Source: a virus. From it: a stretch of 64,000 nt of DNA. The DNA lies in IMG/VR virus record IMGVR_UViG_3300047560_001714, positions 62,001 through 126,000 of that record; one strand, given 5' to 3'. Under the pieces are notes generated by a model. It was not told the DNA's origin, searched no databases, and was given only the letters and a program-made list of their open reading frames with translations. Numbering within the stretch: the stretch's first letter is position 1; each line of letters begins with the position of its first letter. Made by a program: the position numbers and the translations under genes. Below are positions 17,279-53,315 of the stretch, in pieces.

Positions 17279-17291
17279 AATATAGTATTAA

Positions 17292-25036: not shown

Positions 25037-25044
25037 CATAAATA
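25037..25044 (+). promoter_or_regulatory. Candidate T4-type late promoter before tail fibre
   Basis: CATAAATA followed by CAAGAAA, identical to the 15 bases before the second fibre gene (54604). About 40 nt upstream of the start codon. Confidence 0.45.
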
Positions 25045-25083
25045 CAAGAAAGATCTAATGATCATAAAACATGGAGATAGCAA

Positions 25084-26079: not shown

Positions 26080-26089
26080 ATCACATAAA

Positions 26090-26127
26090 TTAATGGCACT
26101 AATATAGTGCCATTAACATTTTTTTAA
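26090..26127. terminator. Bidirectional terminator
   Basis: TTAATGGCACT/AGTGCCATTAA (26090-26100/26106-26116) with a T run on the right and A-rich sequence on the left, between convergent genes. Confidence 0.85.
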
Positions 26128-26630
26128 AAAGTATCTAAAATACTATTTATAATGTCATATGTTTCTTTACTAGAACCTAATTTAATTTCAAGGTAATAAA
26201 CACCATTGATAAAACTATGAAATGATATGTGCTTGCTAGTATTAAACAAATACAACGAATTTACTTGAATATTAACAATCTCACTATTTGAAACTAAATT
26301 GACATGTCCTTCATAATAATCACCAAAAAATAAAAATAGTGAAATAGTTTTAGGGTGATTATAAAATTCTGGAATATATCCCCCTAATGTAACTTTACGA
26401 ATATCTGCGCTTATTATTACCGCACTATCAAAAATATTCAAGACATTGGAAAGTTCATCACAGTTAATAATATCATTGGCCGTATTCGCTGGAATAGTTA
26501 AGATATTATTCTTATATTCACCCCACTGTATATCACCTTTAATATATTGATCCATATTATGAAACCTAGGTGACAACTTAATAAAATTACCCAGATTAAA
26601 TAAACTGCTACTATAAATGTCAAACTCCAT
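26124..26630 (-). CDS. Hypothetical protein, 168 aa, possibly degenerate cupin
   Basis: MEFDIYSSSLFNLG start. Beta-rich with FLFFGDYYEGHVNLV and NGVYYLEIKLG, a pattern like the 2OG oxygenases next door but without a visible HxD, so any catalysis is doubtful. One base separates it from the hydroxylase upstream on the same strand, so it may be an inactive partner. Confidence 0.5.
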   Translation of the reverse strand: MEFDIYSSSLFNLGNFIKLSPRFHNMDQYIKGDIQWGEYKNNILTIPANTANDIINCDELSNVLNIFDSAVIISADIRKVTLGGYIPEFYNHPKTISLFLFFGDYYEGHVNLVSNSEIVNIQVNSLYLFNTSKHISFHSFINGVYYLEIKLGSSKETYDIINSILDTF

Positions 26631-26631
26631 T

Positions 26632-27342
26632 TTAATGCCTATGTAATAAATGTGACATGACTACCGCAACATTATCAGAGGTCAATGGTATATTTAATAT
26701 TAAATGAATACTGTCATCCACCCAAGATATTGTTCTATGAGTTTGCATTGTGTTTACATAATATGCTCTCCCCATCTCAATAGACATCTTTTTATCGACC
26801 CCTTGAATCCAATCATAATCCATGGGTGAACAGTTATTTAAAAAGACCACAATACGAAATACATCTCTAGGCATTACAGGGTGATCTCTGTGTGGAACAA
26901 AATATCCGCCTATATTTGACTTTATTAAAAATGATCTGCCTAGCGAATCGAATAAACTTAATATTGGGCGTAAACTATGACAACTATGATACACATCGGT
27001 TGGTGAATTGAATAATAACTCCGAAAGTTTGTTTCCGCCAGCCCGAACAATTGCTTCTGCTAAACTAGGATCCTCATTATGCAATTTTCCTGGTAAATTA
27101 TATAACACCAATGCTTGTCTATTGTTAACACGGTCGGTTCTTGGTAAGTAATCCACCCATTCCCCATCATATTTTGCTATTTCTTGCATAAATGACGCAC
27201 AATCAATCTTTATATCTAACGGCTCAAAATCGCCAATTTTGGACAAAGATACCTCATTTGCTAGTGTTTCTAAATTGATATTTTCCGAATTATATATTGG
27301 TCGTTGACCAGATGATCCAGGCGGTACTTTTATTTGTTCCAT
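26632..27342 (-). CDS. Aspartyl/asparaginyl beta-hydroxylase-like 2OG oxygenase (paralogue)
   Basis: 236 residues. FLIKSNIGGYFVPHRDHP supplies the HxD, YVNTMQTHRTISWVDD the distal histidine and nearby arginine. The order NCSPMDYDWIQG, then a long strand, matches NCKNTDYVQILG in the 24343 gene, so the two are paralogues. They flank the tail-fibre gene, so phage structural or receptor-binding proteins are candidate substrates. Confidence 0.75.
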   Translation of the reverse strand: MEQIKVPPGSSGQRPIYNSENINLETLANEVSLSKIGDFEPLDIKIDCASFMQEIAKYDGEWVDYLPRTDRVNNRQALVLYNLPGKLHNEDPSLAEAIVRAGGNKLSELLFNSPTDVYHSCHSLRPILSLFDSLGRSFLIKSNIGGYFVPHRDHPVMPRDVFRIVVFLNNCSPMDYDWIQGVDKKMSIEMGRAYYVNTMQTHRTISWVDDSIHLILNIPLTSDNVAVVMSHLLHRH

Positions 27343-27409
27343 AATGAGTTGTCTCCGAAAATATCACGTATTTAGTAATACGGTATGCACACAACCATAA
27401 ATATAAATC

Positions 27410-28078
27410 ATGAATACAATCTATATAGGATATGACGAAAACAGTCCAGTTACCTATCACGTCTGTTCAAACAGTATTATTAGAAAAAGTACCACACCGG
27501 TAGCGTTAATACCATTAGTATTACCATCGTTGCCATATAACGAAACCCATACTGATGGCAGTAACCGATTCGTATACTCTCGATTTTTGGTACCATATTT
27601 ACAAAACTTTACTGGGTGGGCATTATTTATAGATGGGGATATGGTCGTGACCGATGATATTACCACATTATTTACAGAGTTCTTAGACCCATCTAAAGGG
27701 GTGGTTGTTGTTAAGCATTCTTATACAACCAACTCTAAAATAAAATATCTAAACCATACGAATGATGATTATCCGAGAAAAAATTGGAGTAGTGTAATAT
27801 TATGGAATTGTTCCTATTACAAAAATAAAATATTAACCCCAAAAACAATATCTGAATCAACCGGTAGTTTCTTACATAGGTTTTCTTGGTTGGACGATTT
27901 TGAGATAGGAGAATTACCGATCGAATGGAACTGGTTACCTGATGAATTTGGTGAAAATCCAAAAGCAAAAATAATTCATTACACATTAGGTGCACCGTGC
28001 TTTAATGGATACGAAACTACGCCAATGAATGAATTATGGCATCAAGAATTGAAAAACACAATATATTGCGTACAATAA
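27410..28078 (+). CDS. Glycosyltransferase, GT8-like
   Basis: 222 residues with a GT-A fold: IYIGYDENSPVTYHVCSNSI, SRFLVPYL, FIDGDMVV (the metal-binding DxD), NWSSVILWNC and IIHYTLGAPC. This matches bacterial and phage GT8-type enzymes that move a sugar from a nucleotide donor. It may decorate the phage surface or host envelope. It begins a forward operon with the aminotransferase and radical SAM genes. Confidence 0.8.
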   Translation: MNTIYIGYDENSPVTYHVCSNSIIRKSTTPVALIPLVLPSLPYNETHTDGSNRFVYSRFLVPYLQNFTGWALFIDGDMVVTDDITTLFTEFLDPSKGVVVVKHSYTTNSKIKYLNHTNDDYPRKNWSSVILWNCSYYKNKILTPKTISESTGSFLHRFSWLDDFEIGELPIEWNWLPDEFGENPKAKIIHYTLGAPCFNGYETTPMNELWHQELKNTIYCVQ

Positions 28079-28080
28079 TT

Positions 28081-28968
28081 ATGAGACCAAGTTGGAAAAT
28101 AGAAAAATATAATAATACAAAAATAAATTTGGCAAATAACGTTTGTTATGATACAATTTTGCTAAACCAAGTATCAAGTTTAATTAAATCGACAAAAATC
28201 GACTTACGGCAATACCCAGAGGAGGTTCATGTTTATAGAGCTATATCTGCACATCATGAAATATCAATGGATAATATTGCAATTGGGTTTGGGATTGGTG
28301 AACTAATAGTTAGAGTATTGAATCTTAAACAAAATAAAAAAATATCAATTGTTAGCCCAACCTGGCCGATGGTTGAAACATATAGTGAAATATTTAATAT
28401 AGAGTATTGTACTAAATTTGATGAAACAGCAACCACCTTATATTTGGCTAATCCAAATGGAATGTCTGGTGAATGCCTCACTAGACAACAAGTATTAGAG
28501 TTATTACCGAAATTTGATTTAGTAATAGTGGATGAAGCATACGGCGAATTTGCAACTATACAATACAGCGTGATAGATATAGCTGCAAAGGTTGATAATT
28601 TAATAGTTTTAAAGACATTTTCTAAAAGTTTATCACTAGCTGGTATACGATTAGGGTATGCCATTGCTAACACAGAAATAATAAAGCAGCTTCAGTTAAC
28701 ACGCCCAAGTGGTGTACCTTGTGGGATTATTACCCCGATAATAACAGATTTATTTAATTTGATTCCATCGCACGTAAGTAGGATGAACGAAACCCGTAAT
28801 TTCTTAGAATCTAATTTTGATTGTATTCCGTCAAATGGGAATTTTGTATTAATGAAAGAACCACCAATTGGGTTGAGTGATCATTTTTTAATGCGAACCC
28901 TTGATAATGGTATTTGTAGAATGGCACTTGCCGACTTGACTATGATAAAAAATGCTTGTAAATTTTAA
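28081..28968 (+). CDS. PLP-dependent aminotransferase, HisC/class I-II type
   Basis: ATG 28081 (MRPSWKIEKY) starts just after the glycosyltransferase stop. The 295 residues include AIGFGIGELIVRVL, SPTWPMVETY, NPNGMSGE (NPN for PLP), VDEAYGEF (D of the pyridine site) and TFSKSLSLAGIRLGYA with PLP lysine K182. It is nearest to histidinol-phosphate aminotransferase-like enzymes, slightly short at the C-terminus. Substrate may be an amino acid or a nucleotide-linked keto compound in this modification cluster. Confidence 0.85.
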   Translation: MRPSWKIEKYNNTKINLANNVCYDTILLNQVSSLIKSTKIDLRQYPEEVHVYRAISAHHEISMDNIAIGFGIGELIVRVLNLKQNKKISIVSPTWPMVETYSEIFNIEYCTKFDETATTLYLANPNGMSGECLTRQQVLELLPKFDLVIVDEAYGEFATIQYSVIDIAAKVDNLIVLKTFSKSLSLAGIRLGYAIANTEIIKQLQLTRPSGVPCGIITPIITDLFNLIPSHVSRMNETRNFLESNFDCIPSNGNFVLMKEPPIGLSDHFLMRTLDNGICRMALADLTMIKNACKF

Positions 28969-29764
28969 CACACTTCGAGAAATGCAATCACACGGGGTTA
29001 CTGATTTATTATCAACTTTGCGTGTCGTAGAAATAAACCCAATTGATGCTTGTAATCGTTCGTGTTCCTTTTGCCCAAGAAGTATTAAAGAATACTCGGC
29101 TAACAAAATCAAACTATCATTAGATACTATAAAAAAGATAGCAACGGATTTGCAAGAAATATCATTTGATGGACGTATTAGTTTTGCTGGATTTGGTGAG
29201 CCAACTTTATACAAACATCTAATTGAATCAATTTCAATAATTCGAAGTACCGTACCAACCGCCAAGTATATTGAAATAATTACAAATGGTGATTTATTAA
29301 CAAAGCCAATGGTTGCCGAATTGGAAACTGCTGGGTGCACTAACGTCACCATTAGTATGTACGATTACGATAAAACGGCAATTATTGCACCATTATTCGA
29401 AAATACGTCTATTCAGTTGACACTAAAAGATTCATACAATGGTTTTGCAATGGTAAATCGAACTGAAATATTTTCAGAATCAGCCACATTATATAAACAA
29501 AAAGAATGTTATCTACCATTTTATAAAATGTTTATAGATACAGATGGAAATGTGATATTATGCGCAAATGATTGGAAACGTACCTCAATTATAGGGAATG
29601 TGTTAGATGAAACTATACAAGCTATATGGTTAGGTGAGGGATATAAACAATACCGGCAACATTTATTACAACAAACCAGAGATTTAATTCCTTGTAAATT
29701 TTGTAATATTGATGGTACATTGTACGGACGCGCTAGTTTTATAAAATGGTCAACAAATGATTAA
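28952..29764 (+). CDS. Radical SAM protein with SPASM-like tail, 270 aa
   Basis: Cluster motif C34-NRS-C38-SF-C41 binds the SAM-cleaving 4Fe-4S centre. FAGFGEPTLY is the glycine-rich SAM site. The C-terminus has KECYLPF, DGNVILCANDWKR and PCKFCNIDG, a second-cluster (SPASM/twitch) pattern. It overlaps the aminotransferase by 17 nt. Such enzymes modify peptides, nucleotides or small molecules by radical chemistry. Substrate unknown; different in arrangement from the 43-53 kb set. Confidence 0.88.
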   Translation: MLVNFNTLREMQSHGVTDLLSTLRVVEINPIDACNRSCSFCPRSIKEYSANKIKLSLDTIKKIATDLQEISFDGRISFAGFGEPTLYKHLIESISIIRSTVPTAKYIEIITNGDLLTKPMVAELETAGCTNVTISMYDYDKTAIIAPLFENTSIQLTLKDSYNGFAMVNRTEIFSESATLYKQKECYLPFYKMFIDTDGNVILCANDWKRTSIIGNVLDETIQAIWLGEGYKQYRQHLLQQTRDLIPCKFCNIDGTLYGRASFIKWSTND

Positions 29765-30440
29765 AGAATTGCAACAATTACTAGATGAATGGGATATACA
29801 TGTTGCATATCGGTTCCATAATAATATTTATATAAATATTGGTCCTGAAGATCAATATATGTGGAAACGTACTGAAAATGGTGTTTTTATGTGGAAACAG
29901 TATAAAGCATTTTTCTTTCATAATAATGGTATGGTTTATAAACTAACAAATTGGGAAAAAGTCAATGATTGGGCCAATCATGCTAATTTATACAAAATAT
30001 CCTCTAACAATCAAAAATTTTGTATAGAGAAACCAATTGAGTTTCAAACATTTGAACATAATAAAGAATTATGGTTATATTACGTTGTACAACGACCTTG
30101 GGGGAGGAATGGGTGTACTTTTATGGAGGATATACTCCGAGAACATACCGATACTGAGTATTTTTTAAAACTAGTCGATGACCACTCATCACTTTTAAAA
30201 TATTTAAAAATATTAAACTCTATGACTAAGTGTAATTTACCAGCTATTACACCAAAGCGAATAATATACAATGATATGATATGCTGGACTGATTTTAAAG
30301 ATTGGTCACTAACCCCATCCCAATACATAGCCAATACAACCGCATCCATATATCATAGTATGCTAGCAATTGAATCGATGACACGTAAAAAGTTAAATAA
30401 AAAAGCAGTGATAGAAAGGATAACTGATACATGGAAATAA
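29757..30440 (+). CDS. Hypothetical protein, 227 aa
   Basis: MIKELQQLLDEWDIHVAY start, 8-nt overlap with the radical SAM gene. Rich in aromatic residues. PAITPKRIIYNDMICWTDFKDW recalls the catalytic region of small aminoglycoside-kinase-like proteins but the evidence is thin. Likely acts with the radical SAM and aminotransferase genes in one operon. Confidence 0.5.
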   Translation: MIKELQQLLDEWDIHVAYRFHNNIYINIGPEDQYMWKRTENGVFMWKQYKAFFFHNNGMVYKLTNWEKVNDWANHANLYKISSNNQKFCIEKPIEFQTFEHNKELWLYYVVQRPWGRNGCTFMEDILREHTDTEYFLKLVDDHSSLLKYLKILNSMTKCNLPAITPKRIIYNDMICWTDFKDWSLTPSQYIANTTASIYHSMLAIESMTRKKLNKKAVIERITDTWK

Positions 30441-32837: not shown

Positions 32838-33419
32838 ATGGCTGGATTAATTCCAATGGTTGTAGAACAAGAAGCACACGGCGAACGATCTTATGACATC
32901 TATAGCAGATTATTAAAAGATCGTATCGTAATGCTTGACACAGATGTAAATGAACATTCTGCAAGTGTTATTGTTGCGCAACTTCTATTTTTAGAAAGTC
33001 AAGGCAATGATGATATTAGCTTCTTTATTAATAGTCCAGGCGGTTCAGTAACCGCTGGTATGGCTATCTATGATACAATGAACTTTATTAAACCAGACGT
33101 CTCGACGATTGTAATGGGGCAAGCGTGCAGTATGGGTAGTTTGCTCGCATCCTCTGGTGCAAAAGGCAAACGTAAAATTCTGCCATCCGCACGGCATATG
33201 ATTCATCAAGTTAGTTCCGGTACTCGTGGTACCGCAATTGATATGAAAATTGCGCTCGAAGAAACATTGAAGTTAAATAAGTACTTAACTGAGGTGTATG
33301 TGAAAAACACTGGACATTCTTACGAAAAGCTTGAACAGGATATGAGTCGTGACTATTACATGAGTGCGCAAGAAAGCGTTGATTACGGGCTTGCAGATTT
33401 AATTATTACATCACGTTAA
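32838..33419 (+). CDS. clpP: ClpP protease subunit
   Basis: 193 residues with the complete catalytic triad: S98 in GQACSMGS, H123 in HMIHQ, D172 in [24 protein letters not shown] is the oxyanion region. ClpP forms a barrel of two heptamers fed by ClpX or ClpA. No Clp ATPase is in the window, so it presumably uses host unfoldases; degrading tmRNA-tagged or host proteins is one option, processing phage proteins another. GGAG ribosome site upstream. Confidence 0.95.
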
Positions 33420-34947: not shown

Positions 34948-35700
34948 ATGTCTGCTGTTTCAACAGATGTACAATTAGCGGTTGCGGAAGCACCGATGTT
35001 AAATAAAAGAAATATGTTTGCTGGCGCTGCCTTATATGTTTTATTTTATGGGTGGGTTCGCTGGTACGAGGGTGTTTATGGATGGTCTGCAGGTTTGGAC
35101 TCATTCGCACCTGAGTTCGAAACATACTGGATGAACTTTCTCTATATCGAAATGGTACTAGAAATCGTAACTGCTTCAGTATTATGGGGATATATCTGGA
35201 AAAGCCGTGATCGTAAAGTGATGTCAATCACACCGCGTGAAGAATTGCGTCGTCATTTCACACATTGGGTATGGTTGGTAATGTATGGTATCGCTATCTA
35301 TTATGGCGCATCTTACTTCACTGAACAAGATGGTACATGGCATCAAACAATCGTTCGTGACACTGACTTTACTCCAAGTCACGTGATTGAGTTTTACTTA
35401 AGTTATCCAATTTACATTATTACTGGTGTTGCTGCTTTCTTATACGCAAAAACACGGTTACCATCATATCAAAAAGGCTTACCTTTACAATATATGGTAT
35501 CAGTAATTGGTCCGTTCATGATTCTTCCTAATGTTGGTCTGAACGAATGGGGTCACACATTCTGGTTTATGGAAGAATTGTTCGTAGCTCCATTGCATTA
35601 CGGGTTTGTATTCTTTGGTTGGGCTGCACTTGGGGTTTTAGGTGTGGTTAACATTGAAGTACAAGCAATTTCAAGATTGCTTAAATCCGAATTAGCTTAA
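34948..35700 (+). CDS. pmoC: Particulate methane monooxygenase subunit C (PmoC)
   Basis: 250 residues, about family length, with six or so membrane helices. The metal motif DxxxHx12H is intact: D128, H132 and H145 (in EQDGTWH and TPSH), as are N199, H203 and H217 (in LNEWGH and PLHYG) of the second copper site. Recognisable stretches include WVRWYEGVYGWSAGLDSF and GPFMILPNVGLNEWGH, close to what I remember of gammaproteobacterial PmoC. PmoC is essential to the enzyme that turns methane into methanol in the intracytoplasmic membrane. No pmoA or pmoB is present, so the product would join host PmoA/PmoB. Strong GGAGGT ribosome site; own promoter, leader and terminator. Confidence 0.96.
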   Translation: MSAVSTDVQLAVAEAPMLNKRNMFAGAALYVLFYGWVRWYEGVYGWSAGLDSFAPEFETYWMNFLYIEMVLEIVTASVLWGYIWKSRDRKVMSITPREELRRHFTHWVWLVMYGIAIYYGASYFTEQDGTWHQTIVRDTDFTPSHVIEFYLSYPIYIITGVAAFLYAKTRLPSYQKGLPLQYMVSVIGPFMILPNVGLNEWGHTFWFMEELFVAPLHYGFVFFGWAALGVLGVVNIEVQAISRLLKSELA

Positions 35701-42263: not shown

Positions 42264-43076
42264 ATGAGAAAAAGTTATTGGTCATGTTCAGAGTTTGCTG
42301 ATTGGTTGCGTGGAACTAAAAAGTTACCGTATGGTACAAGCGATGAATGGGATGATTGGGATTCTTTAGCAAAAGCAAATAATCAAATTAGATTTTGGCT
42401 GGCTGAAACCGCATTGGACAAACTACAGGATATTATAATGTGGCCGATTGACACAATTTATAATATCAAATATTATTGTGTAAACCGATGGGTAACCAAA
42501 ACACACCAACTTACAGCTGCGCCGCAGGACATTAAACCAGGTGAATGGTGTGATGTAGGTAATAGGTTTTTGCCTTGTTTATTCAACGAATTAGTCAATT
42601 TTGTTGAGGTTGAGCAAGCGTGGCATCATATTGCGTGGGATGAGGATGCTAGTAAAAAATACGAGGCACCATTCAATGCTAGTGGATATTTTAATACTCG
42701 AACTTGGAGATGTCCGGAAGCTGGGTTAGAATATTTAGACTGGGCAAGTGAATTAAGATACGATGCCAATATAATGGCATCTGATCATCCTAAGTTTGGC
42801 CATCTTACTGACCAAGCATTAGCGGCACGTGAGATTAGAGAACTTTACTACTGGTGGAAAGTGCAACGCCCACAGCGGGTTGACCCATATGATGCCAGTG
42901 GGTTTAATGAGTTAATTGACCAGGATGCAAAATTTTTTACATCTTTGAAAAACATGGATAAAGACAAATCTAAAAAAGCTAATGAAATGATACGAGATTT
43001 GGAAGAACTTTACGAAAATGAGGATGAAGAAATGATGATTAGGCTAATAAAAATTAGGCAAGGATTGTGGACATGA
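42264..43076 (+). CDS. Hypothetical protein, 270 aa
   Basis: MRKSYWSCSEFADWLRGTKK start; GGAG upstream. Tryptophan-rich and acidic, with a helical end (DLEELYENEDEEMMIRLI). Similar proteins recur in large phages without assigned function, as far as I recall. The stop overlaps the first radical SAM gene of the cluster (ATGA), so it may be an accessory or substrate protein. Confidence 0.65.
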   Translation: MRKSYWSCSEFADWLRGTKKLPYGTSDEWDDWDSLAKANNQIRFWLAETALDKLQDIIMWPIDTIYNIKYYCVNRWVTKTHQLTAAPQDIKPGEWCDVGNRFLPCLFNELVNFVEVEQAWHHIAWDEDASKKYEAPFNASGYFNTRTWRCPEAGLEYLDWASELRYDANIMASDHPKFGHLTDQALAAREIRELYYWWKVQRPQRVDPYDASGFNELIDQDAKFFTSLKNMDKDKSKKANEMIRDLEELYENEDEEMMIRLIKIRQGLWT

Positions 43077-44446
43077 CTAATGAAGAAAGAATTAGAATTT
43101 TAGACGAAAAGCGAGAAAAAATCGATGAAATAAGTCCTAGTTTTTGCACAGCAAAATGGTTGCAAACAACTTTATATCTACAAAACGGGTATAACCATAG
43201 TTGCCACCATCCTAGTCCTCATAAGATTCCACTTGCTGAAATTAAAATAGATCCTGCGTCATTGCACAATAGCTCTTTTAAAAAGTCGCAACGTGTTATG
43301 ATGAAGCAAGGTCAACGACCGCCTGAATGTGAATATTGTTGGAAAATTGAAGACCTTAATAAAAATTATTTTTCTGACAGGCATTATAAAACATCTGATA
43401 CGTGGGCATGGCCCCGATTTGATGAAATTGCCGCATCTGATCCTACCATTAACGTATTTCCGAGTTACCTTGAAGTTAGTTTTAGTAATGCATGTAACTT
43501 TGCATGTGCGTACTGTTCTCCAGAAATAAGCAGTAAATGGATGGAAGACATAGTTGAGTACGGCCAATATCCAACTGAACATAGCAGTCATAGTCTAAGT
43601 TATTTAGAGAGTGTCGGTAAGATGCCGTATAAAAACAATGAAGAGAATCCATATGTAGATGCATTTTGGCAATGGTTCCCAGAAGCGTTACCTAACTTAA
43701 AAGTTCTTCGAATCACTGGTGGCGAGCCCACTATGGCAAAATCAATGTGGCGATTGTTAGATTACCTAATTGAGAATCCAAATTTAGATCTAAATATTGC
43801 GATTAACACAAATGCATGTGTTGACAATAAACTGATTGATAAACTAATCGAAAAGATCAACAAATTAACAGAGATTGGGATATCTGTTGATATATACACA
43901 AGTCTAGAAAGTATTGGTGAGCAAGCCGAATATGTGAGAGATGGGTTATCATACGATCAATGGTGTAGGAATGTACATCGTTTTCTCTCCGAAACTTCGT
44001 CAACAGTTTCATTAATGACAACTATTAATATATTGAGTCTTCCGACTTTTACGAAGTTCATCTCATTAATTATGGAATTTCGTAAAATTTACAATAAAGA
44101 TTTTGCATACAATCGAATCCCATTAAGTATAAATTACTTACGGTGGCCACCGCATTTGCAAGCAACGCTGTTGGATCAAGATACTAGGACAACTTATGCA
44201 ACTGAAATTGAAGAGTTTTGCGAACAATGGTTGAAATACTATAGTCCAGAACTTTATGCAAGAATTTACCTTGAAGAGTTTGATCAAATAAAAAGATTCT
44301 GTGATTATTTAAGAACATCCGTCACTGAATTAAATTACAGAAAAGACTTTGTGAACTATATAAATACATACGATTTTCGACGAGGAAAAAATTTCGCAGA
44401 ATGTTTTCCAGAATATAAAAACTTATTAGAGAAGTGGAATGCCTAA
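43073..44446 (+). CDS. Radical SAM protein 1 of the cluster, 457 aa
   Basis: Unusual layout: an N-terminal cysteine module (FCTAKW, SCHHPSPH, CEYCWK) precedes the radical SAM motif C141-NFA-C145-AY-C148. Then LRITGGEPTM is the SAM-binding GGE. The N-terminal cysteines look like a SPASM/twitch cluster moved to the front. Residue patterns show it is a paralogue of the 44439 protein. ATG 43073 overlaps the stop upstream. Substrate unknown; the 270-aa protein just before it is a candidate. Confidence 0.88.
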   Translation: MTNEERIRILDEKREKIDEISPSFCTAKWLQTTLYLQNGYNHSCHHPSPHKIPLAEIKIDPASLHNSSFKKSQRVMMKQGQRPPECEYCWKIEDLNKNYFSDRHYKTSDTWAWPRFDEIAASDPTINVFPSYLEVSFSNACNFACAYCSPEISSKWMEDIVEYGQYPTEHSSHSLSYLESVGKMPYKNNEENPYVDAFWQWFPEALPNLKVLRITGGEPTMAKSMWRLLDYLIENPNLDLNIAINTNACVDNKLIDKLIEKINKLTEIGISVDIYTSLESIGEQAEYVRDGLSYDQWCRNVHRFLSETSSTVSLMTTINILSLPTFTKFISLIMEFRKIYNKDFAYNRIPLSINYLRWPPHLQATLLDQDTRTTYATEIEEFCEQWLKYYSPELYARIYLEEFDQIKRFCDYLRTSVTELNYRKDFVNYINTYDFRRGKNFAECFPEYKNLLEKWNA

Positions 44447-45890
44447 AAAACCAGAAGAAAGTTTAAAACAATACCGAATTCGTGTATTAGATAGCAAGAG
44501 CAATAGCTTTTGTGGTGCAAAGTGGTTTAATGCAACCACATGGTTAGGTAGCGGAACAACTGCTAGTTGTCATCACCCTCCTGCACACACTATTCCAATA
44601 TCCGAAGTAAACGAAAATTTTACAGCGATACATAACACCTCTCATAAAAAAGCAATGCGTCGAATGATGCAAGAAGGTGAAAGACCTCGTGAATGCGAAT
44701 ATTGCTGGAAGATGGAAGACATGGGTAAAGATGCTGTGAGTGATCGTGTTTTCAAAAGCATAATTTACACAGACGAAGAACTTGATATCGCATATAATAC
44801 ACATCAAGATGAAAACGTGCAACTTAAAACATTTGAAATCGCATTCGACCGAGTATGTAATTTAGCATGTTCGTATTGTAATGCATCTTTTTCAACTACA
44901 TGGGCTAAGGACATTAAAAACAATGGTCCTTATCAGAACTTAGTCAGTGACGGTGCAGGCGCGTATCATCATGCTGGAGATTGGGCTCAACCGTTTAAGG
45001 ATGATCAAGAAAATCCATACATACAAGCATTTTGGAAGTGGTGGGACAATGGTCTTTCGGACAGTTTGCAAGAACTAAGAATTACTGGCGGCGAACCTCT
45101 AATGAGTGGAAATACGTGGAAGTTAATGGATTGGTTCGAATCACAGAACTCAGATATTCGATTTGCGATTAATACCAACCTAATTGCAAAAAAAGATATT
45201 ATTGACGCACTAATAGATAAATCGCATAATATTAAGAATTTTGATTTATATACTAGCTGCGAATCAGTTGGTGCTCATGCTGAGTATATCCGAGATGGAT
45301 TAGATTACAATCTATGGTTAGCAAACTTGACTAGAGTTTTAACTGAAGCTCGTTATCATGAGGTAAATGTAATGATGACCATTAATAGTCTTTGCTTGTT
45401 TAGCATTACTGACTTTTTAGATGAAATTTATAAATTAAAAGAATTAACACAAAGTAAAAGTCCTGCTGTTAGTTTAAACTTACTTAGATTTCCTAGTTTT
45501 CAAAGTCCTCTCGCATTACCAACACACATAAAAGATGTATTGCATAAAAATCTTTCAGAATGGTACGAACAGAAAAAATCATTGCCGTATTGGGATACCT
45601 TTGAAAAAACAAATATTGAACGGTTAATCGATTACTTAATCACGGTTGATGCTCCACACCGCCGCACAAGTAATTCAATTACATTATGGAGAGATTTTAA
45701 AACATTCTATAAACAATACGATGTCCGTAGAAACAAAGATATAAATGTTTTCCCTCCGATATTAACCGAGTGGATTGAAAGTATTCCGGATACTGATTCT
45801 GCTATTCAAGAATTAGCTGAGAAAGAAGGTTGGATATTAACACCTGATAACAAAAATATAGATAACCCAACGGCAACATATGACAAATAA
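44439..45890 (+). CDS. Radical SAM protein 2 of the cluster, 483 aa
   Basis: Same layout as protein 1: FCGAKWFNATT, ASCHHPPAHT and CEYCWKMEDMGKD, then C140-NLA-C144-SY-C147 and LRITGGEPLM. The two are clearly related over most of their length. 8-nt overlap upstream, 11-nt overlap downstream. A longer C-terminal tail ends NKNIDNPTATYDK. Confidence 0.88.
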   Translation: MPKKPEESLKQYRIRVLDSKSNSFCGAKWFNATTWLGSGTTASCHHPPAHTIPISEVNENFTAIHNTSHKKAMRRMMQEGERPRECEYCWKMEDMGKDAVSDRVFKSIIYTDEELDIAYNTHQDENVQLKTFEIAFDRVCNLACSYCNASFSTTWAKDIKNNGPYQNLVSDGAGAYHHAGDWAQPFKDDQENPYIQAFWKWWDNGLSDSLQELRITGGEPLMSGNTWKLMDWFESQNSDIRFAINTNLIAKKDIIDALIDKSHNIKNFDLYTSCESVGAHAEYIRDGLDYNLWLANLTRVLTEARYHEVNVMMTINSLCLFSITDFLDEIYKLKELTQSKSPAVSLNLLRFPSFQSPLALPTHIKDVLHKNLSEWYEQKKSLPYWDTFEKTNIERLIDYLITVDAPHRRTSNSITLWRDFKTFYKQYDVRRNKDINVFPPILTEWIESIPDTDSAIQELAEKEGWILTPDNKNIDNPTATYDK

Positions 45891-47202
45891 AATCGGAAAA
45901 TATTTTTGTGTTGCTCCATGGACTCATACATATCTAAGTCCACAAAGTGAACGCCGTATATGTTGCGCAAGTCGGGAACCAGCAGCATGGCAACGGCAAT
46001 ACATAGATTCGAAAGGTACAGACTGCGATACATACTCTCCAAAAACTCTTGAAGAACATTGGAATAGCGAACACATGAAAAGTGTTCGCAAACGAATTCT
46101 AGCAGGGGAAAAAATCCCAGAATGTCAAGTATGCAATGATCAGTTACTAAACCTTCATACTTATAGACAATATTTTACAGATTCTTTATTTCCTCATAAA
46201 ATAGAAGATATTATAAATTCTACCGACGAAACCGGCTATACGACAATGAATCCGATTAGTTTTGATTATAGAATTTATAACTTATGTAATTTTAAATGTC
46301 GTATGTGTGGAGAACAGCTATCTAGTTCTTGGGAATCAGAAAAACGCCAGATGAATAACTGGAGTTCAATTCACGACAAGTGGATGATTTTAGAAAATAA
46401 ACAGTTAATCCAGGAGTTCCAGCAAGGAGTTGCTGAACAAGAATTATGGAAAAGTGTTAAAAATCATACTATAGAAGAAATTTATTGGGTAGGCGGTGAA
46501 CCATTGATGTACAACATTCACTGGGATGTTATGAACTACTTAGTCAAATCAGGGCATAGCAAGAACGTGGTTGTTAGATATAATACTAATTTAAGTCGTA
46601 CTAGTTATAAAGATAACAATTTATATGATTTACTAACTCATTTTAAGAGGGTGAATATATGTGCAAGCATAGATGCAACAAAAGAGATTGGAGAATGGAT
46701 ACGAACCGGTCTTAACTGGAACGAATGGCTCGACAACTTTAAATCCGGTATTTTTTTAAATGAAAAATATGGAATGGACGCAATGGTGTTAGATGTAACA
46801 TTAACATTACCTGGTTTACTAGGAATCAAGGATATGATCGATTTAGCGGTGGAATTAAATGTTAAAAGTTACGTGAAGATTACATTTGATTTTGATTCTA
46901 GTGCAATTATGAGTCCAATGTGTTTACCTAAAGAAATTTTAAATGAAATTTGTAATGATTTAATCGAATACGAAACCCAACATGGAAATTTATTAACTAG
47001 AATCTATAGTCAAACGTTCCGAGATATGCTGAATCGACCGACTTTTGAGGATAAATATCCTGATTATAGACAAGGACTAATTAAAGGTAAGGAACGATAC
47101 AAAAATATCGCAGAATTTAGGAAAGACGGCCAAATAGCTGTGACAATAGAAGATATCTTCAAAAAAAATAACAAAATTTTTAATTGGTGGAATTCTATAT
47201 GA
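45880..47202 (+). CDS. Radical SAM protein 3 of the cluster, 440 aa
   Basis: N-terminal FCVAPWTHTYLSP, RRICCAS and CQVCNDQLL form the front cysteine module, and C136-NFK-C140-RM-C143 is the radical SAM motif. YWVGGEPLM is the SAM site. The CxxPWxHxxxxP start is shared with proteins 4, 5 and 6, making this a second subgroup. Overlaps neighbours on both sides. Confidence 0.88.
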   Translation: MTNKIGKYFCVAPWTHTYLSPQSERRICCASREPAAWQRQYIDSKGTDCDTYSPKTLEEHWNSEHMKSVRKRILAGEKIPECQVCNDQLLNLHTYRQYFTDSLFPHKIEDIINSTDETGYTTMNPISFDYRIYNLCNFKCRMCGEQLSSSWESEKRQMNNWSSIHDKWMILENKQLIQEFQQGVAEQELWKSVKNHTIEEIYWVGGEPLMYNIHWDVMNYLVKSGHSKNVVVRYNTNLSRTSYKDNNLYDLLTHFKRVNICASIDATKEIGEWIRTGLNWNEWLDNFKSGIFLNEKYGMDAMVLDVTLTLPGLLGIKDMIDLAVELNVKSYVKITFDFDSSAIMSPMCLPKEILNEICNDLIEYETQHGNLLTRIYSQTFRDMLNRPTFEDKYPDYRQGLIKGKERYKNIAEFRKDGQIAVTIEDIFKKNNKIFNWWNSI

Positions 47203-48356
47203 GTACCTTATGTCCTCTACCGTGGATACATTTAGCAAGTCACCCAGAAGGAAAGGTTACACTATGTTGTATTAGTGAACATGCTTGTAATATGAGTGCT
47301 GCTCGAACAAACGGCGAGACCTTAAATTTAAACAAACACTCTGTATTTGAAATTGTAAATAACGATTACTTTAAAAAAACAAGACTAGAAATGTTAGCCG
47401 GAGTCAAACCTACCGCGTGTTCTCGATGTTATCGAGAGGAAGAGTTAACCGGAAAAAGTAAGCGATTATCCGAAAAATTAAAATTTAGTGTCGATTATTC
47501 AACTAATACAGACGGATCTATTATTCCTAATTTAAAATTTATCGAACTTCGACTAGGTAACCTATGTAACGTTAAATGCAGAACATGCAATCCTGCATCT
47601 AGCACACAGTGGATACAAGAATATAATAAATTACAACAGGAATTAAATTTTGTAGCAAACTATGACACTAAGATTAATACAGATTGGACACAAAGTGACA
47701 AGTTTTGGGATGATTTATTAGAAAATAGTAAGGACATAGAATTAATTTATATTAACGGTGGGGAGCCCACGTTAGTTGAGAAACATTGGACTTATCTTGA
47801 AAGATTGATCGACGCAAATTTAAATGAACAAGTTACTCTTTGGTATAACATTAATATGACAAATGTACCAGACAATCTTGTTAATATCTGGAGACAATTT
47901 AAGAAAGTTATTGTTCACGGGTCAATCGACGATATTAACGAACGCAACTCATATATTAGAAAAGGTACTAATTGGAATTCTGTAGAATCTAACTTAATTA
48001 AGTTAAAATCTTTAGATTGGATCGAGTTGCATGTCACTCAAACCGTCAGTTGGTTAAACATTTACTATGTTCCCGAATTTAATGATTATTTTGAATCACA
48101 CCAGATAAATACGCATATTAATTTAGTCTATGATCCGATTTTTTTAAGCCCATTTGTAATTCCAAATTATGCTAAAGAAGAATTATTTAAAAAATTTAGT
48201 GGAACAAAATTTAACTGGCTTATACCGTTAATTAAGACAGGAGAAGACTTAGAAATATTCAAGCAAGGCGTTGAATATAACAGATGGTTAGACCGATCAA
48301 GAAACGAAAATTTTCAAACACATTTTTCCGAATGGACAACTATTTTAAGGATATAA
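47199..48356 (+). CDS. Radical SAM protein 4 of the cluster, 385 aa
   Basis: ATG 47199 gives MSTLCPLPWIHLASHPEG; front cysteines continue TLCCIS and CSRCYREEEL. Radical SAM motif C123-NVK-C127-RT-C130; YINGGEPTL for SAM. WNSxx and LEMLAGVKP between the modules are typical of SPASM-type phage proteins. It overlaps protein 3 by 4 nt and is followed by an SGNH hydrolase. Confidence 0.88.
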   Translation: MSTLCPLPWIHLASHPEGKVTLCCISEHACNMSAARTNGETLNLNKHSVFEIVNNDYFKKTRLEMLAGVKPTACSRCYREEELTGKSKRLSEKLKFSVDYSTNTDGSIIPNLKFIELRLGNLCNVKCRTCNPASSTQWIQEYNKLQQELNFVANYDTKINTDWTQSDKFWDDLLENSKDIELIYINGGEPTLVEKHWTYLERLIDANLNEQVTLWYNINMTNVPDNLVNIWRQFKKVIVHGSIDDINERNSYIRKGTNWNSVESNLIKLKSLDWIELHVTQTVSWLNIYYVPEFNDYFESHQINTHINLVYDPIFLSPFVIPNYAKEELFKKFSGTKFNWLIPLIKTGEDLEIFKQGVEYNRWLDRSRNENFQTHFSEWTTILRI

Positions 48357-48357
48357 C

Positions 48358-49215
48358 ATGACACAATGCCCCAATAACGACACCCTCTCTGAATTAAAAC
48401 TAAGGAGTCCATTACTAGCGAAAACTCCATCAGACATACTGTATTACAGTAACATGCAAAATCGAGCCGAATTAGCTCAAGGTTTCCCACCACCGGGATT
48501 TCACACGTTTATAAACACACAAGAAAAAAACAGAAGTAATAGTAACTGGGAAGAGCCATTCTCGTATTATATCAATGAGCTCGGCTTTAGAGGTAATTAT
48601 CCCCGAACTGATATAAAAAATATTATAGGATTTTTTGGATGTAGTTGTACATTTGGTGAAGGATTGCCAGAAACTAGGCTCTTTTCATCTATTGTCGGAT
48701 CACACAGAAATTATCCGATACTTAATTTAGGAATGCCAGGTACTGGATGTCATCGAATTGCCATGACTTTTTCGGCTGCTGCAAACATATGGAAAATAGA
48801 TACTGCTATAGTAACATTACCGAATTACAGCCGATTTAATTATGTATCTAAATACAATTTAATGTATTCGATTTTACCAGCACATCCTACTATGCCCGAT
48901 GAAGCTGAAACTGTTAGGCTTGACCTTGTTAAACATTTTAGTGAAGAATATTTTATATCTGCGGCTAAAGATGCGATTACATGGATCGTTACAACTGCAC
49001 GTCAGAAAAAGATTAAACTCATCTTAGGTTCTTGGGATCCGCATACATTAAAAATAATCGAAACTGTAACTGAATACAACCCACCCTTTTTTAATATGTA
49101 CCCTATAGGTTCTACACCTGCTAGAGATACGATTCATCCAGGAACTGCGGCTAACCGGATGTATGCAGAAACGCTAATAAATTACATGGATAACACCAAC
49201 TATGTGCAGACCTGA
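48358..49215 (+). CDS. SGNH/GDSL-like hydrolase A, 285 aa
   Basis: Block I is FFGCSCTFGEGL (GxS), block II LNLGMPGTGCHR, block III near TLPNYSR, and block V ARDTIHPG with the D..H pair. SGNH enzymes remove acyl groups from sugars or peptides; several in phages act on surface glycans. The start ATG is 1 nt after the radical SAM stop. A second, related copy lies at 50013. Confidence 0.72.
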   Translation: MTQCPNNDTLSELKLRSPLLAKTPSDILYYSNMQNRAELAQGFPPPGFHTFINTQEKNRSNSNWEEPFSYYINELGFRGNYPRTDIKNIIGFFGCSCTFGEGLPETRLFSSIVGSHRNYPILNLGMPGTGCHRIAMTFSAAANIWKIDTAIVTLPNYSRFNYVSKYNLMYSILPAHPTMPDEAETVRLDLVKHFSEEYFISAAKDAITWIVTTARQKKIKLILGSWDPHTLKIIETVTEYNPPFFNMYPIGSTPARDTIHPGTAANRMYAETLINYMDNTNYVQT

Positions 49216-50020
49216 TAAAATAAGTATCGCTATAATTACATTTCATAATGACTTTGAGTTGCTAAAAAAATTATTAAATTCAATATATGCTTACTGGGAC
49301 CCGGTAGAAATAGATTCTATTAAAATTGTATTAAATGACGGTCCTGAATATTACTCTCAATTTAATGAGTTAATCGACGAGGTCACGGTTCCTGACTTTA
49401 AAATAGATAAAGTATTCCATTATGAATTAGCACCAAAAGTATTTTTGTTAAATTGGACTAGCCAACAATTATTTAAATGTGTAATATCTAAAAAAATTAC
49501 AACAGAATGGTATTTAATAAACGATTGTAAAGATACTTATAATGCTCCTACCGGAATTACCGATTGCTTTACTCAAGACGGAAAAGCTATAATGCATCTC
49601 GATCACAATCGGTATACCGATCAAAATGAACCAATGACTCATTGGGGGTTTGGACCGTTTAGTTCGGCATTTCGAAACTCGTGTCTTCTTTTTAATGTTG
49701 ACCCCGAAGATTGTAAAAATTATCACTTACCATTTTTAACTCCGTTTTTAGTTAAAACATCTATGATGCAAGATATGGTACAAGATGTTAAAAGTATGAT
49801 GCAAGGAATGTTTCCGTTTTTATTTGCGATAAATCTTGACGGTGCGTTCTTTGTAACTGAATTTTTACTATACAACGCATATTGTTATTCAAAAAACAAA
49901 TTAACTGATTATGCCGACTGGGAGATAAATTATCGAAAATTTTTTAGTTCGGTGAGCCAATCTATTGAACAACGGAGTACAACTGGGGTTAGGATTATGG
50001 ATTTTTCTAGAAATGAGTAA
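49202..50020 (+). CDS. Glycosyltransferase-like protein, 272 aa
   Basis: ISIAIITFHNDFELLKKLL start is like GT2 enzymes (beta strand then helix), with SIKIVLNDGPEYY following. The usual DxD is not plain; EWYLINDCKD is the nearest. FVTEFLLYNAYCYSK near the end may face a membrane. Overlaps hydrolase A by 14 nt and hydrolase B by 8 nt, so sugar transfer and acyl removal are probably linked. Confidence 0.5.
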   Translation: MCRPDKISIAIITFHNDFELLKKLLNSIYAYWDPVEIDSIKIVLNDGPEYYSQFNELIDEVTVPDFKIDKVFHYELAPKVFLLNWTSQQLFKCVISKKITTEWYLINDCKDTYNAPTGITDCFTQDGKAIMHLDHNRYTDQNEPMTHWGFGPFSSAFRNSCLLFNVDPEDCKNYHLPFLTPFLVKTSMMQDMVQDVKSMMQGMFPFLFAINLDGAFFVTEFLLYNAYCYSKNKLTDYADWEINYRKFFSSVSQSIEQRSTTGVRIMDFSRNE

Positions 50021-50816
50021 ACTTTTATTAAATCAACTGCAACCATCAAAAATACAAATCACTGACTTGTACATTTTAAATCATTTTGTGCATTGTTATT
50101 CACGCATGAATAATTTATTGGGTAAATCTTATTCAACTCGTGAATTGCTTCTTAGCGAGCCAAATGCAGTAAACGATCCTTGGGAGTATCGAATAAATCA
50201 ATATGGATATCGCGGCGACGATTGGGAATTCACATCGCCAACCATACCATTTTTTGGATGTAGCTTTGTATTTGGAATTGGTGTAAACATTCCGGTTTCT
50301 GAATTAGTTCAATCTCGTATTAACGTGCCATGTTATAATTTAGGTCAACCAGGTGCAAATATTCTTAATATTTTAAAAACATTTATATCATTTAATAATA
50401 TATTTCCGACTACGTATGCTATTATTGTATTACCTGGATTTCACAGACTTCATTTACCTAAATATAACGATATAACTAGAGAATGGGAATATCATAATAT
50501 CCATCCCATGCATGGGAGACTATTCGATGAATCAATAAGAATTATTACATCGGATGTTATATTAACATACGTTATTGATTACATAGATTGGGCATCTGCA
50601 CAAGCCCAAAAGTCTAATACAACAATTCTTTGGTCGGCATGGGATTCTGAAGTATTTGAACTGTTATGTGAGTTGTTTCCAAAAGAATATGTTTTTGACC
50701 CACCAAACCAAGTTGATTACGGACGAGACGCCGGACACTATGGACCAATTACTGTAAAGAACTGGGCAGATATTATATGTAATAAGTATCAGACACAACC
50801 ACCTGAATCAATATGA
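50013..50816 (+). CDS. SGNH/GDSL-like hydrolase B, 267 aa
   Basis: ATG 50013 sits within the end of the glycosyltransferase-like gene. PFFGCSFVFGIGV is block I and YNLGQPGANI block II; RDAGHYGP holds the D..H. RINQYGYRGDDWEF before block I parallels YINELGFRGNYPR in hydrolase A, so the two are paralogues. Confidence 0.72.
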   Translation: MSKLLLNQLQPSKIQITDLYILNHFVHCYSRMNNLLGKSYSTRELLLSEPNAVNDPWEYRINQYGYRGDDWEFTSPTIPFFGCSFVFGIGVNIPVSELVQSRINVPCYNLGQPGANILNILKTFISFNNIFPTTYAIIVLPGFHRLHLPKYNDITREWEYHNIHPMHGRLFDESIRIITSDVILTYVIDYIDWASAQAQKSNTTILWSAWDSEVFELLCELFPKEYVFDPPNQVDYGRDAGHYGPITVKNWADIICNKYQTQPPESI

Positions 50817-52087
50817 CTATACAAATTAACTCAATTAAAACATTTAAAAAAACAGTTTGTCCAATACCTTGGATGCATTTAGCATTCGAACCAAGTGGTA
50901 AAGTTATTCCTTGTTGTTTAACCTCAGTTCATAATTACTTTGCTGGAGACCTCACCACTCAATCTATTGATGAAATCTGGAATAGTGATAATATGAAACA
51001 ACTTCGCAAACAGATGATTAATGGTGTTAAACCAGATGTATGTCGTAAATGTTTTGAACGGGAAGCAGTTACGGGTGAAAGTAGTAGAATACATCATGAA
51101 AGATATTTCCCAGATGTAATTGAACGCATACCAGAAATTACACTAGAAGATGGAACTTGTACTGAAATGAAACTTAAATATTGGGACTTTCGTTTTAGTA
51201 ACTTATGCAATTTCAAATGTCGTAGTTGTTGTGCCAGATACAGTTCATCTTGGGTACCAGATGCAAAAAAACTTGGATTAATTAATGAACAAGAAAAAGT
51301 ATGGTATATACAATCAGTCAATGAACGCGCAAATTTTGATTTTCTAGCAGAACAAGTGAAATATGTTGAAAAGATTTACTTTGCCGGTGGTGAGCCATTA
51401 TTAATGGATGAACATTGGCAAATATTAGACATGTTAACTGAAAATAAACGGTTTGATGTGACTTTAAATTATAATACTAACTGTTCGACATTAACTCATA
51501 ACAACAAAAATGTGATTGATTATTGGAAACAATGGGATTTTGGTAAAATAGAAATATGGGCTAGCATTGATGAAATTGGTGAACGTGCTGAGTTAATTCG
51601 TTCTGGTACTGTTTGGAGTAAGGTTGAAGAAAATCTTAAAGAATTAACAAAGTATGATAACATAATTGTAAAACCAGGTATTACCGTTGGCGCTTGGAAT
51701 GTTTCTAGACTACCAGAAATAATCACCTATTTAAATGAACTAGGTGTACTAAGAGAAAAACTTTATTATAGTAATTTTTTTATAAATTTAATAGAACACC
51801 CAACATATTATCATGTTCACATTCTCCCAGCAGATACTAGAAAAGATATTGTGAATAAACTGGAATCATTTATCCTGGATTATAACACCAACTATAATAC
51901 TAATATTACTAACTTATTTACACATATAATTCATGAATTAAAAAAACCACAATCGTTCAACGATACTAAGAGATTTGTATCTCTTACTGACAAACTTGAC
52001 AATATACGAGATGAAGATTTGTATAAAATAATACCAGAAATGCAAGTATTACTTCCACAGATTGAACCACCAAACAATGACATCTAA
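50813..52087 (+). CDS. Radical SAM protein 5 of the cluster, 424 aa
   Basis: CPIPWMHLAFEPSGKVIPCC and CRKCFERE are the front cysteines; C132-NFK-C136-RS-C139 the radical SAM motif; YFAGGEPLL the SAM site. It is a close paralogue of protein 6: both share KYWDFRFSNLCNFKCRS, WASIDEIGERAELIRSGT-like and TVGAWNVSRLPEI-like stretches. ATGA overlap upstream, 11-nt overlap downstream. Confidence 0.9.
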   Translation: MTIQINSIKTFKKTVCPIPWMHLAFEPSGKVIPCCLTSVHNYFAGDLTTQSIDEIWNSDNMKQLRKQMINGVKPDVCRKCFEREAVTGESSRIHHERYFPDVIERIPEITLEDGTCTEMKLKYWDFRFSNLCNFKCRSCCARYSSSWVPDAKKLGLINEQEKVWYIQSVNERANFDFLAEQVKYVEKIYFAGGEPLLMDEHWQILDMLTENKRFDVTLNYNTNCSTLTHNNKNVIDYWKQWDFGKIEIWASIDEIGERAELIRSGTVWSKVEENLKELTKYDNIIVKPGITVGAWNVSRLPEIITYLNELGVLREKLYYSNFFINLIEHPTYYHVHILPADTRKDIVNKLESFILDYNTNYNTNITNLFTHIIHELKKPQSFNDTKRFVSLTDKLDNIRDEDLYKIIPEMQVLLPQIEPPNNDI

Positions 52088-53315
52088 AATATGCCCAATA
52101 CCTTGGGTTCACTTAAATATTGATCCAAACGGGGATGTATATCCTTGTTGTCTAATGTCACATACTGGATACATCGTTGGGAATGTACATTCCCAACCAA
52201 TTTCACAAATATGGAACAGCGATGGTATGAAAACATTGCGAAAACAATTCATGAATGGTGAGGAACCTAGTGTTTGTTCTACCTGTTTTGATAGAGAACG
52301 GGTTACTGGTGTAAGTAATAGGATACATAGACTTAGAAATTTTCAAAACACCATTGATAATGTTTCATCTACCACACTCCCAGATGGTACCTGCACTGAA
52401 ATGCAACTAAAATATTGGGATTTTCGTTTTAGTAATTTGTGTAATTTTAAATGTCGAAGTTGCGGTCCGAAATACAGTTCATCATGGATACCAGATGCGG
52501 TAAAACTTGGAAGATCAACCTCTGATTCAAAAGTTACACAAGTATCCTCGATTTATGATATTAATACATATGAATTTCTTGAATCCCAAATTGAATACGT
52601 TGAGAGAATCTATTTTGCGGGTGGCGAACCCCTACTAATGGCTGAACATTGGCAAATTCTAAAATTATTGTTTAAACGTAAGAAATTCGATGTTGAAATA
52701 ATGTATAATACAAATTGTTCGACTCTTACCTTCGGTGGTGAACACGCAATAGATTATTGGAAACATTGGCAGTTCAAAAAATTAGATATTTCCGCTAGTA
52801 TTGACGAAATCGGTGTTCGGGCAGAGTTAATTCGGTCGGGAACTAATTGGAAAAAAGTTGAAGCTAATTTAATAACCATTACTAAACATGAAAATATCAT
52901 TATTCGCCCGAGTATAACAGTTGGTGCGTGGAATGTATTCCGATTACCAGAAATACTAACTCATTTGGTTGATATCGGAGTCATTAAACATTACGAAAAC
53001 CTAGCAAAGTATACTAATTTTCACTTAAACTTACTACAATATCCATCCCACTATCATGTAAGTATTCTTCCAAATGAATACAAAGATGAAATTATTATTA
53101 AACTAACCAATTTCATATCAGAGTTTAATAGTATGTATGAAACAGAAATCGACAGTATGTTTTTACAGATTTTTCATGAATTATCAAAACCATTTGATGA
53201 GACTGCGGCAAAATCTTTCATCAAATTATCAACGACACTTGATAACGTAAGAAATGAAAATATATTTACTATTATACCGGAATTAAATGTCATAAAGGAA
53301 TATATTGACAACTAA
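52077..53315 (+). CDS. Radical SAM protein 6 of the cluster, 412 aa
   Basis: CPIPWVHLNIDPNGDVYPCC and CSTCFDRE front module; C122-NFK-C126-RS-C129; YFAGGEPLL. Most similar in the window to protein 5, indicating a recent tandem duplication. ATG 52077 overlaps the previous stop. Ends the cluster; the next gene has its own promoter. Confidence 0.9.
   Translation: MTSKICPIPWVHLNIDPNGDVYPCCLMSHTGYIVGNVHSQPISQIWNSDGMKTLRKQFMNGEEPSVCSTCFDRERVTGVSNRIHRLRNFQNTIDNVSSTTLPDGTCTEMQLKYWDFRFSNLCNFKCRSCGPKYSSSWIPDAVKLGRSTSDSKVTQVSSIYDINTYEFLESQIEYVERIYFAGGEPLLMAEHWQILKLLFKRKKFDVEIMYNTNCSTLTFGGEHAIDYWKHWQFKKLDISASIDEIGVRAELIRSGTNWKKVEANLITITKHENIIIRPSITVGAWNVFRLPEILTHLVDIGVIKHYENLAKYTNFHLNLLQYPSHYHVSILPNEYKDEIIIKLTNFISEFNSMYETEIDSMFLQIFHELSKPFDETAAKSFIKLSTTLDNVRNENIFTIIPELNVIKEYIDN

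What the first reader, a model, noticed from the sequence alone, without database searches (positions are those of the whole stretch)
43073..53315. Six radical SAM proteins in tandem with front-end cysteine modules
Six genes of one superfamily occur in 10 kb, in two subgroups, with paired SGNH hydrolases and a glycosyltransferase-like protein among them, all overlapping. The auxiliary cysteine motif lies at the N-terminus, which is unusual for SPASM proteins. Proteins 5 and 6 are recent duplicates. This looks like a pathway making or modifying a complex glycan or peptide, perhaps for the virion or host surface.
Basis: partly seen in the sequence, partly recalled or inferred. Interest (0 to 1): 0.72.

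Follow-up and report, generated by a model that had tools for sequence, protein, structure and literature searches.

The report
Phage series of radical enzymes
A large T4-like phage carries six tandem radical-SAM enzyme genes, and the first four occur in the same order, each dependent on the one before it, in about a hundred related virus contigs, which points to a multi-step pathway, probably building or modifying a surface sugar (or protein), whose chemistry is still unknown.

Summary
Window 43073-53315 has six tightly coupled radical-SAM ORFs (R1-R6) with two SGNH-type proteins and a DUF6492 protein between R4 and R5. All six pass the NCBIfam cut-off for N_Twi_rSAM (NF033640). The N-terminal cysteine module is therefore a defined subfamily trait and not an oddity. 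R5 and R6 are not recent duplicates: 55% identical, while R5 is 67% identical to other phages' proteins.

The new result is that R1, R2, R3 and R4 are four separate orthologue clades that keep the same order in IMG/VR contigs (R1-R2 102:1 forward:reverse, R2-R3 79:1, R3-R4 74:1), and that they are nested. R2 has R1 upstream in 48/48 clusters, R3 has R2 and R1 in 30/30, R4 has R3 in 35/45, yet R1 occurs without R2 and R2 without R3. This reads as a cumulative, collinear pathway. Bdellovibrionota chromosomes carry parts of it.

Most phage arrays follow glycosyltransferases and often tail-fibre genes, which supports a glycan target. In bacteria this link is weak, and R2 can sit beside PqqD, so a peptide or protein substrate remains possible. 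Radical-SAM cassettes in such phages had been reported in passing; the ordered nested series I did not find described.

The parts
42264..43076 (+). U270, unknown protein; left flank of the cassette slot, stop overlaps R1 start by 4 bp
   Evidence: homologues flank other cassettes in L009, L012, L096, L097; no Pfam/PHROG hit
43073..44446 (+). R1, N_Twi_rSAM, AKW subgroup; first member of the series
   Evidence: NF033640 326 bits; AlphaFold model pLDDT 94.5; orthologue clade
44439..45890 (+). R2, N_Twi_rSAM, AKW subgroup; second member
   Evidence: NF033640 303 bits; R1 upstream in 48/48 clusters
45880..47202 (+). R3, N_Twi_rSAM, PW subgroup; third member
   Evidence: NF033640 306 bits; R2 and R1 upstream in 30/30 clusters
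47199..48356 (+). R4, N_Twi_rSAM, PW subgroup; fourth member (ATG at 47199; TTG ORF starts 47184)
   Evidence: NF033640 334 bits; R3 upstream in 35/45 clusters
48358..49215 (+). S1, SGNH-type protein with GCS and RDxxHPG motifs
   Evidence: family profile hits an SGNH-type esterase (9otv) E 0.0043
49202..50020 (+). DUF6492 protein, possible glycosyltransferase (unproven)
   Evidence: PF20102 34.7 bits, cut-off 22.9; S1 and this protein recur together in L097
50013..50816 (+). S2, SGNH-type protein, paralogue of S1 (TTG ORF starts 49965)
   Evidence: weak DUF6473 hit
50813..52087 (+). R5, N_Twi_rSAM, PW subgroup
   Evidence: NF033640 369 bits; AlphaFold model pLDDT 91.8
52077..53315 (+). R6, N_Twi_rSAM, PW subgroup (ATG 52077; TTG ORF starts 52062)
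   Evidence: NF033640 358 bits
53362..54573 (+). D403, unknown protein; right flank of the cassette slot
   Evidence: homologues right of other cassettes in L009, L011, L012
54635..56104 (+). D489, virion structural/fibre-like protein next to the slot
   Evidence: PHROG 6002 virion structural protein E 5e-11

Best explanation
The cassette encodes a sequential radical-SAM pathway. R1 acts first, and R2, R3 and R4 act in turn on its product; R5/R6 and the two SGNH-type proteins are add-on tailoring steps (for example acyl transfer or removal). Each enzyme uses the CX3CX2C [4Fe-4S] cluster to make a 5'-deoxyadenosyl radical, and a second cluster in the N-terminal twitch module to bind substrate or pass electrons. 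The likeliest substrate is a sugar or glycan built by phage glycosyltransferases and shown on the infected host surface or on the tail fibres. Shown here: intact motifs, fold, orthologue clades, conserved order and nested dependency, neighbourhood. Inferred: sequential action, cluster function, sugar substrate, biological role.
For: R1, R2, R3 and R4 fall in separate clades; their best orthologues in other phages are 60-76% identical, while all window paralogues except R5/R6 are 37% or less by BLAST. Order forward:reverse over 90%-identity cluster pairs: R1-R2 102:1, R2-R3 79:1, R3-R4 74:1. Nested dependency in loci fetched independently by each query: R2>R1 48/48, R3>R2 30/30, R4>R3 35/45, whereas R1 lacks R2 in 43/128 and R2 lacks R3 in 24/95 clusters. 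Adjacent members have median gaps of -8 to -25 bp. In 129 bacterial genomes R2 occurs in 9 and R3 in 6, 5 shared, hypergeometric P 2.7e-6; in three of the five the genes lie on different contigs or 30-60 kb apart. Glycan context in phages: R1 is directly preceded by the GT-like c1 (99/194) or a GT7-domain protein c15 (32/194); 27 of 44 R1 loci with 9 kb upstream hold both tail-fibre and GT families; inserted genes include NeuB, RmlD, epimerase, UDP-glucose dehydrogenase, sulfotransferase and SAM synthetase. Fold neighbours of the barrel include the sugar-acting BlsE (Z 13.6-13.7) and DesII (Z 12.3-13.3); the N-terminal module aligns with the twitch domain of BtrN (E 0.003).
Against: Bacterial N_Twi_rSAM genes show no glycosyltransferase enrichment among 124 neighbours, and Bacteriovoracaceae arrays stand among housekeeping genes. 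Peptide-acting SkfB, anSME and SuiB fit the barrel as well (Z tied). In this phage the array is not in its own fibre-GT locus (G000 168.8-184.4 kb) and its only GT candidate is a DUF. Order and nesting could also arise by block transfer of one ancestral cassette with loss from the 3' end. c1 has no Pfam or solved-structure match; GT-A-like is my reading of its DxD motif.
Confidence: 0.5

Rival explanations
1. The series modifies a peptide or protein, such as a tail-fibre protein or a small precursor, by successive radical steps (crosslinks, epimerisations), as SPASM/twitch RiPP maturases do.
For: Nearest folds include SkfB, SuiB, anSME and EpeE. In three Bdellovibrionota loci R2 lies next to or near a PqqD-family protein, the peptide-recognition partner of many such enzymes (PF05402, two above cut-off). 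Phage arrays often follow tail-fibre genes.
Against: No PqqD-family protein in 29 phage records including this one. No room for a precursor ORF inside the array. One of the bacterial PqqD loci also holds a GT4 glycosyltransferase, and genes that read as a polysaccharide-type ABC exporter lie nearby in several.
Confidence: 0.33
2. The conserved order is mainly historical: one ancestral cassette spread by horizontal transfer and decays from its downstream end; the paralogues act independently on different substrates.
For: Blocks and insertions vary widely between loci; phage islands of this kind are gene-exchange hot spots (PMC7029224).
Against: Order and dependency persist at about 50% identity and with other genes inserted between members; R2 and R3 co-occur in bacteria even when unlinked.
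Confidence: 0.17

Closest known systems
NF033640 N_Twi_rSAM, twitch domain-containing radical SAM protein (NCBIfam subfamily)
   Same: All six proteins match end to end over the cut-off; N-terminal twitch plus radical SAM barrel
   Different: The family model says nothing of function, of the R1-R4 clades, or of their order
Radical SAM cassettes in the host recognition cluster of pelagimyophages (PMC7029224) and the T4-like TARA_ERS488813_N000010 with 12 radical SAM genes (PMC5332604)
   Same: Marine T4-like phages; in PMC7029224 radical SAM cassettes lie in an island with glycosyltransferases and tail fibres; the TARA genome also has an A-type Fe-S carrier, as 12 of 28 array-bearing records do over cut-off
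   Different: Those papers note the genes only in passing; the passages read give no subfamily, order, nesting or bacterial counterpart. This phage has no A-type carrier or IscU match and its array lies outside its own fibre-GT locus
Sugar-acting radical SAM enzymes: BtrN, DesII, AprD4, BlsE
   Same: Barrel fold (BlsE and DesII Z about 12-14, 3.3-4.2 A over 220-245 residues); the BtrN twitch matches the N-terminal module by profile
   Different: Sequence identity 14-17%; the BtrN auxiliary domain is C-terminal; only the barrel aligns
SPASM peptide maturases (anSME, SkfB, SuiB, PqqE)
   Same: Barrel fold; the N-terminal module matches SPASM models
   Different: SPASM is C-terminal there; here CxxC occurs in the last 130 residues of 2 of 753 relatives; no PqqD partner found in phages

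Membership tests
N_Twi_rSAM (NF033640) | Whole-protein score over 170 bits | tested here: met
   303-369 bits for R1-R6
N_Twi_rSAM (NF033640) | N-terminal twitch module with four cysteines before the radical SAM barrel | tested here: met
   Invariant C, C, CxxC in R1-R6; kept in 737 of 753 relatives
Radical SAM superfamily | CX3CX2C motif and GGEP | tested here: met
   749 of 753 relatives keep CX3CX2C
Radical SAM superfamily | [4Fe-4S] cluster and reductive SAM cleavage | not testable with these tools
   Needs purified protein
SPASM peptide maturase | C-terminal SPASM domain | tested here: not met
   SPASM profile matches only within residues 10-86; CxxC in the C-terminal 130 aa in 2 of 753 relatives
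SPASM peptide maturase | Peptide-recognition (PqqD/RRE) partner and precursor peptide | tested here: inconclusive
   No PqqD in 29 phage records, but PqqD beside R2 in some bacteria; fragments and fused RREs not excluded
Viperin-like antiviral enzyme (NF038283) | Score over 180 bits | tested here: not met
   At most 38 bits
SGNH hydrolase/acyltransferase (S1, S2) | Nucleophile Ser in block I and DxxH in block V | tested here: met
   GCS and RDxxH invariant in 11 relatives; the SGNH fold itself was not predicted here
Glycosyltransferase (49202-50020) | Match to a glycosyltransferase family or fold | tested here: inconclusive
   DUF6492 only; no solved-structure match; no similarity to c1
Pelagimyophage-type host recognition cluster | Island between VrlC and gp14 with tail fibres and glycosyltransferases | tested here: inconclusive
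   Array adjoins fibre-like genes but VrlC and gp14 were not located; the phage has a separate fibre-GT locus

The most novel reading that the evidence does not exclude
Marine and freshwater viruses carry a collinear radical-SAM assembly series of four or more steps, in which gene order mirrors step order and each step needs the one before it. It makes a radical-modified glycan or glycoprotein not known from cells, with a cellular counterpart in Bdellovibrionota.
Probability: 0.33. Interest if true: 0.85.

Novelty: new variant of a known kind. Interest (0 to 1): 0.62.

Why it matters
Radical-SAM enzymes do difficult chemistry and are costly in iron and SAM, yet some of these virus loci carry up to ten of them. 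A strict, nested order across many viruses turns a vague 'auxiliary gene' annotation into a testable pathway with a first step (R1), defined intermediates and a natural set of truncated versions (R1 only, R1-R2, R1-R3, R1-R4). It may show how large aquatic phages alter host or virion surfaces.

Tried and rejected
Recent duplication of R5/R6: rejected. Viperin-like antiviral function: scores far below cut-off. Own Fe-S supply: no A-type carrier or IscU match in this virus record, though 12 of 28 array-bearing records have a carrier over cut-off (no control set of array-less phages). Nucleotide search of isolate phages with the whole array: no match; by protein only Vibrio phages K566/K567 at 23% identity. 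Searches for close relatives of S1 and of the DUF6492 protein in viral contigs found none. c1 and c3 against solved structures: nothing significant. R1 is not strictly required by R2 in bacteria: separate strong R1 hits in only 5 of 9 R2 genomes. R4 nesting is looser; some R4-class hits near the threshold lie outside R3 arrays. Paper searches found no description of the ordered series; subscription papers are not held.

Full report
WHAT IS THERE. The window is part of a 187,935-bp IMG/VR virus record with a phage-type DNA polymerase and clamp loader. From 43073 to 53315 lie nine genes on one strand, coupled by overlaps or a 1-bp gap: R1-R2-R3-R4-S1-DUF6492-S2-R5-R6. All six R proteins pass the curated cut-off of NF033640, N_Twi_rSAM, and keep CX3CX2C, GGEP and four N-terminal cysteines. 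AlphaFold models of R5 (pLDDT 91.8) and R1 (94.5) are confident. Their barrels match BlsE, SkfB, anSME, DesII and others at Z about 12-14, and Z values this close are tied. A profile of the six aligns the N-terminal module with the C-terminal twitch domain of BtrN (E 0.003), so the module looks like a twitch moved to the front, which is what the family name says.

TWO SUBGROUPS, FOUR ORTHOLOGUE CLADES. In a tree of 170 relatives the AKW group (R1, R2) and the PW group (R3-R6) split deeply. R1, R2, R3 and R4 each fall in a clade with proteins from other phages that hold the same relative position. R5 is closer to other phages' proteins (67%) than to R6 (55.5%).

ORDER AND NESTING. I fetched viral loci with R2, R3 and R4 queries separately, classified all ORFs with clade profiles and collapsed proteins at 90% identity. 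Order is nearly fixed: 102:1, 79:1 and 74:1 for successive pairs. Dependency runs one way: R2 has R1 upstream in 48/48, R3 has R2 and R1 in 30/30, R4 has R3 in 35/45 clusters, while R1 lacks R2 in 43/128 and R2 lacks R3 in 24/95. Other genes may sit between members, yet adjacent members are coupled. 116 fetched loci (not collapsed) hold all four. The radical-SAM cysteines are kept in 749 of 753 relatives; the R2 and R3 search patterns did not contain that motif. Caveat: thresholds for class membership are mine, and the loci are a best-scoring sample of IMG/VR, not a census.

NEIGHBOURS IN PHAGES. R1 is directly preceded by c1 (99/194) or c15 (32/194). c15 carries glycosyltransferase-7 domains; c1 has a DxD-type motif but no database match, so GT is an inference. 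Downstream come c3 (reads like a GT; no match), UDP-glucose/GDP-mannose dehydrogenase and epimerases. Genes inserted between radical SAM genes include more radical SAM proteins, NeuB, RmlD, methyltransferases, a sulfotransferase and one SAM synthetase. 27 of 44 R1 loci with enough upstream sequence have both GT and fibre families. In this phage the corresponding fibre-GT locus lies at 168.8-184.4 kb without radical SAM genes, and the array sits more than 50 kb away in a slot flanked by U270 and D403. Related contigs fill that slot with other radical SAM and sugar genes (L009, L011, L012, L096, L097).

COUNTERPARTS IN BACTERIA. A scan of genomes found relatives in Bdellovibrionota, Bacteroidota and others. 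A Bacteriovoracaceae contig holds R2-R3-R4-like genes in tandem and an R1-R2 pair among housekeeping genes; another genome has R3-R4. Among 129 genomes of that order R3 occurs in 6 and R2 in 9, five shared (P 2.7e-6), in three of the five not closely linked, so the link is not only physical. R1 is less strictly tied. Some R2 genes lie near PqqD-family proteins, one with a GT4 protein close by. Pooled bacterial neighbours show no glycosyltransferase enrichment.

INTERPRETATION. The simplest reading of one-way dependency plus fixed order is a pathway in which each enzyme needs the previous product. A shared history of block transfer with downstream loss could mimic part of this; unlinked co-occurrence in bacteria speaks against history alone. 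Substrate: glycan is favoured in phages, peptide/protein is not excluded. I give the sequential pathway about 0.75, a glycan substrate about 0.5 and a peptide or protein substrate about 0.35.

KNOWN WORK. Radical SAM cassettes were mentioned in the host recognition cluster of pelagimyophages, where that study proposes that the glycosyltransferases alter the host O-chain (PMC7029224), and 12 radical SAM genes with an A-type carrier in a T4-like marine genome (PMC5332604). I found no paper on their order, nesting or bacterial counterpart in the held library. Hence 'new variant of a known kind'.

Noticed in passing
window 34948-35700: AmoC/PmoC (PF04896, E 7e-121), which suggests a methane- or ammonia-oxidising host. 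No match among isolate phages. PmoC phages are described in PMC7674155, where 'radical SAM' does not occur in the text.
   Followed up: partly
window 23111-30440: Second island: AMP-binding enzyme, two related proteins of one family (24343-24993, 26632-27342), a fibre-like protein, GT8-like protein, class I aminotransferase, a classic C-terminal SPASM radical SAM protein (28952-29764) and an unknown protein.
   Followed up: partly
G000:C1 51442-53306 (L107): A protein with curlin-like repeats (51442-52221; my reading, no PHROG hit) followed by a FecR-domain protein; curli-related genes are reported in pelagimyophages (PMC7029224).
   Followed up: no
G000:C1 46037-47980, 140716-143845; window 32838-33419: Chaperone/protease set in a phage: DnaK-like, DnaJ-like, an ATP-dependent protease subunit (PHROG 4871) and a ClpP-like protein (DnaK, DnaJ and ClpP by my reading of the sequence).
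   Followed up: no
window 328-17477: ARAGORN reports a permuted tmRNA gene (328-749) followed by 17 tRNA genes.
   Followed up: no
L396 15706-16668, L448 5174-6103, L452 4913-5827, L454 7200-8117, L456 3350-4288: A ~310-aa protein family with a W.RNS...SDLD-like motif (nucleotidyltransferase-like by eye) recurs next to or near R1/R2 in Bdellovibrionota; no Pfam match for the three tested.
   Followed up: partly
L448 18477-18935, L455 9219-9698: Small proteins with an endosialidase-chaperone domain (Peptidase_S74, E 3e-14 for the L455 copy) near PqqD and R2 in bacterial genomes.
   Followed up: no
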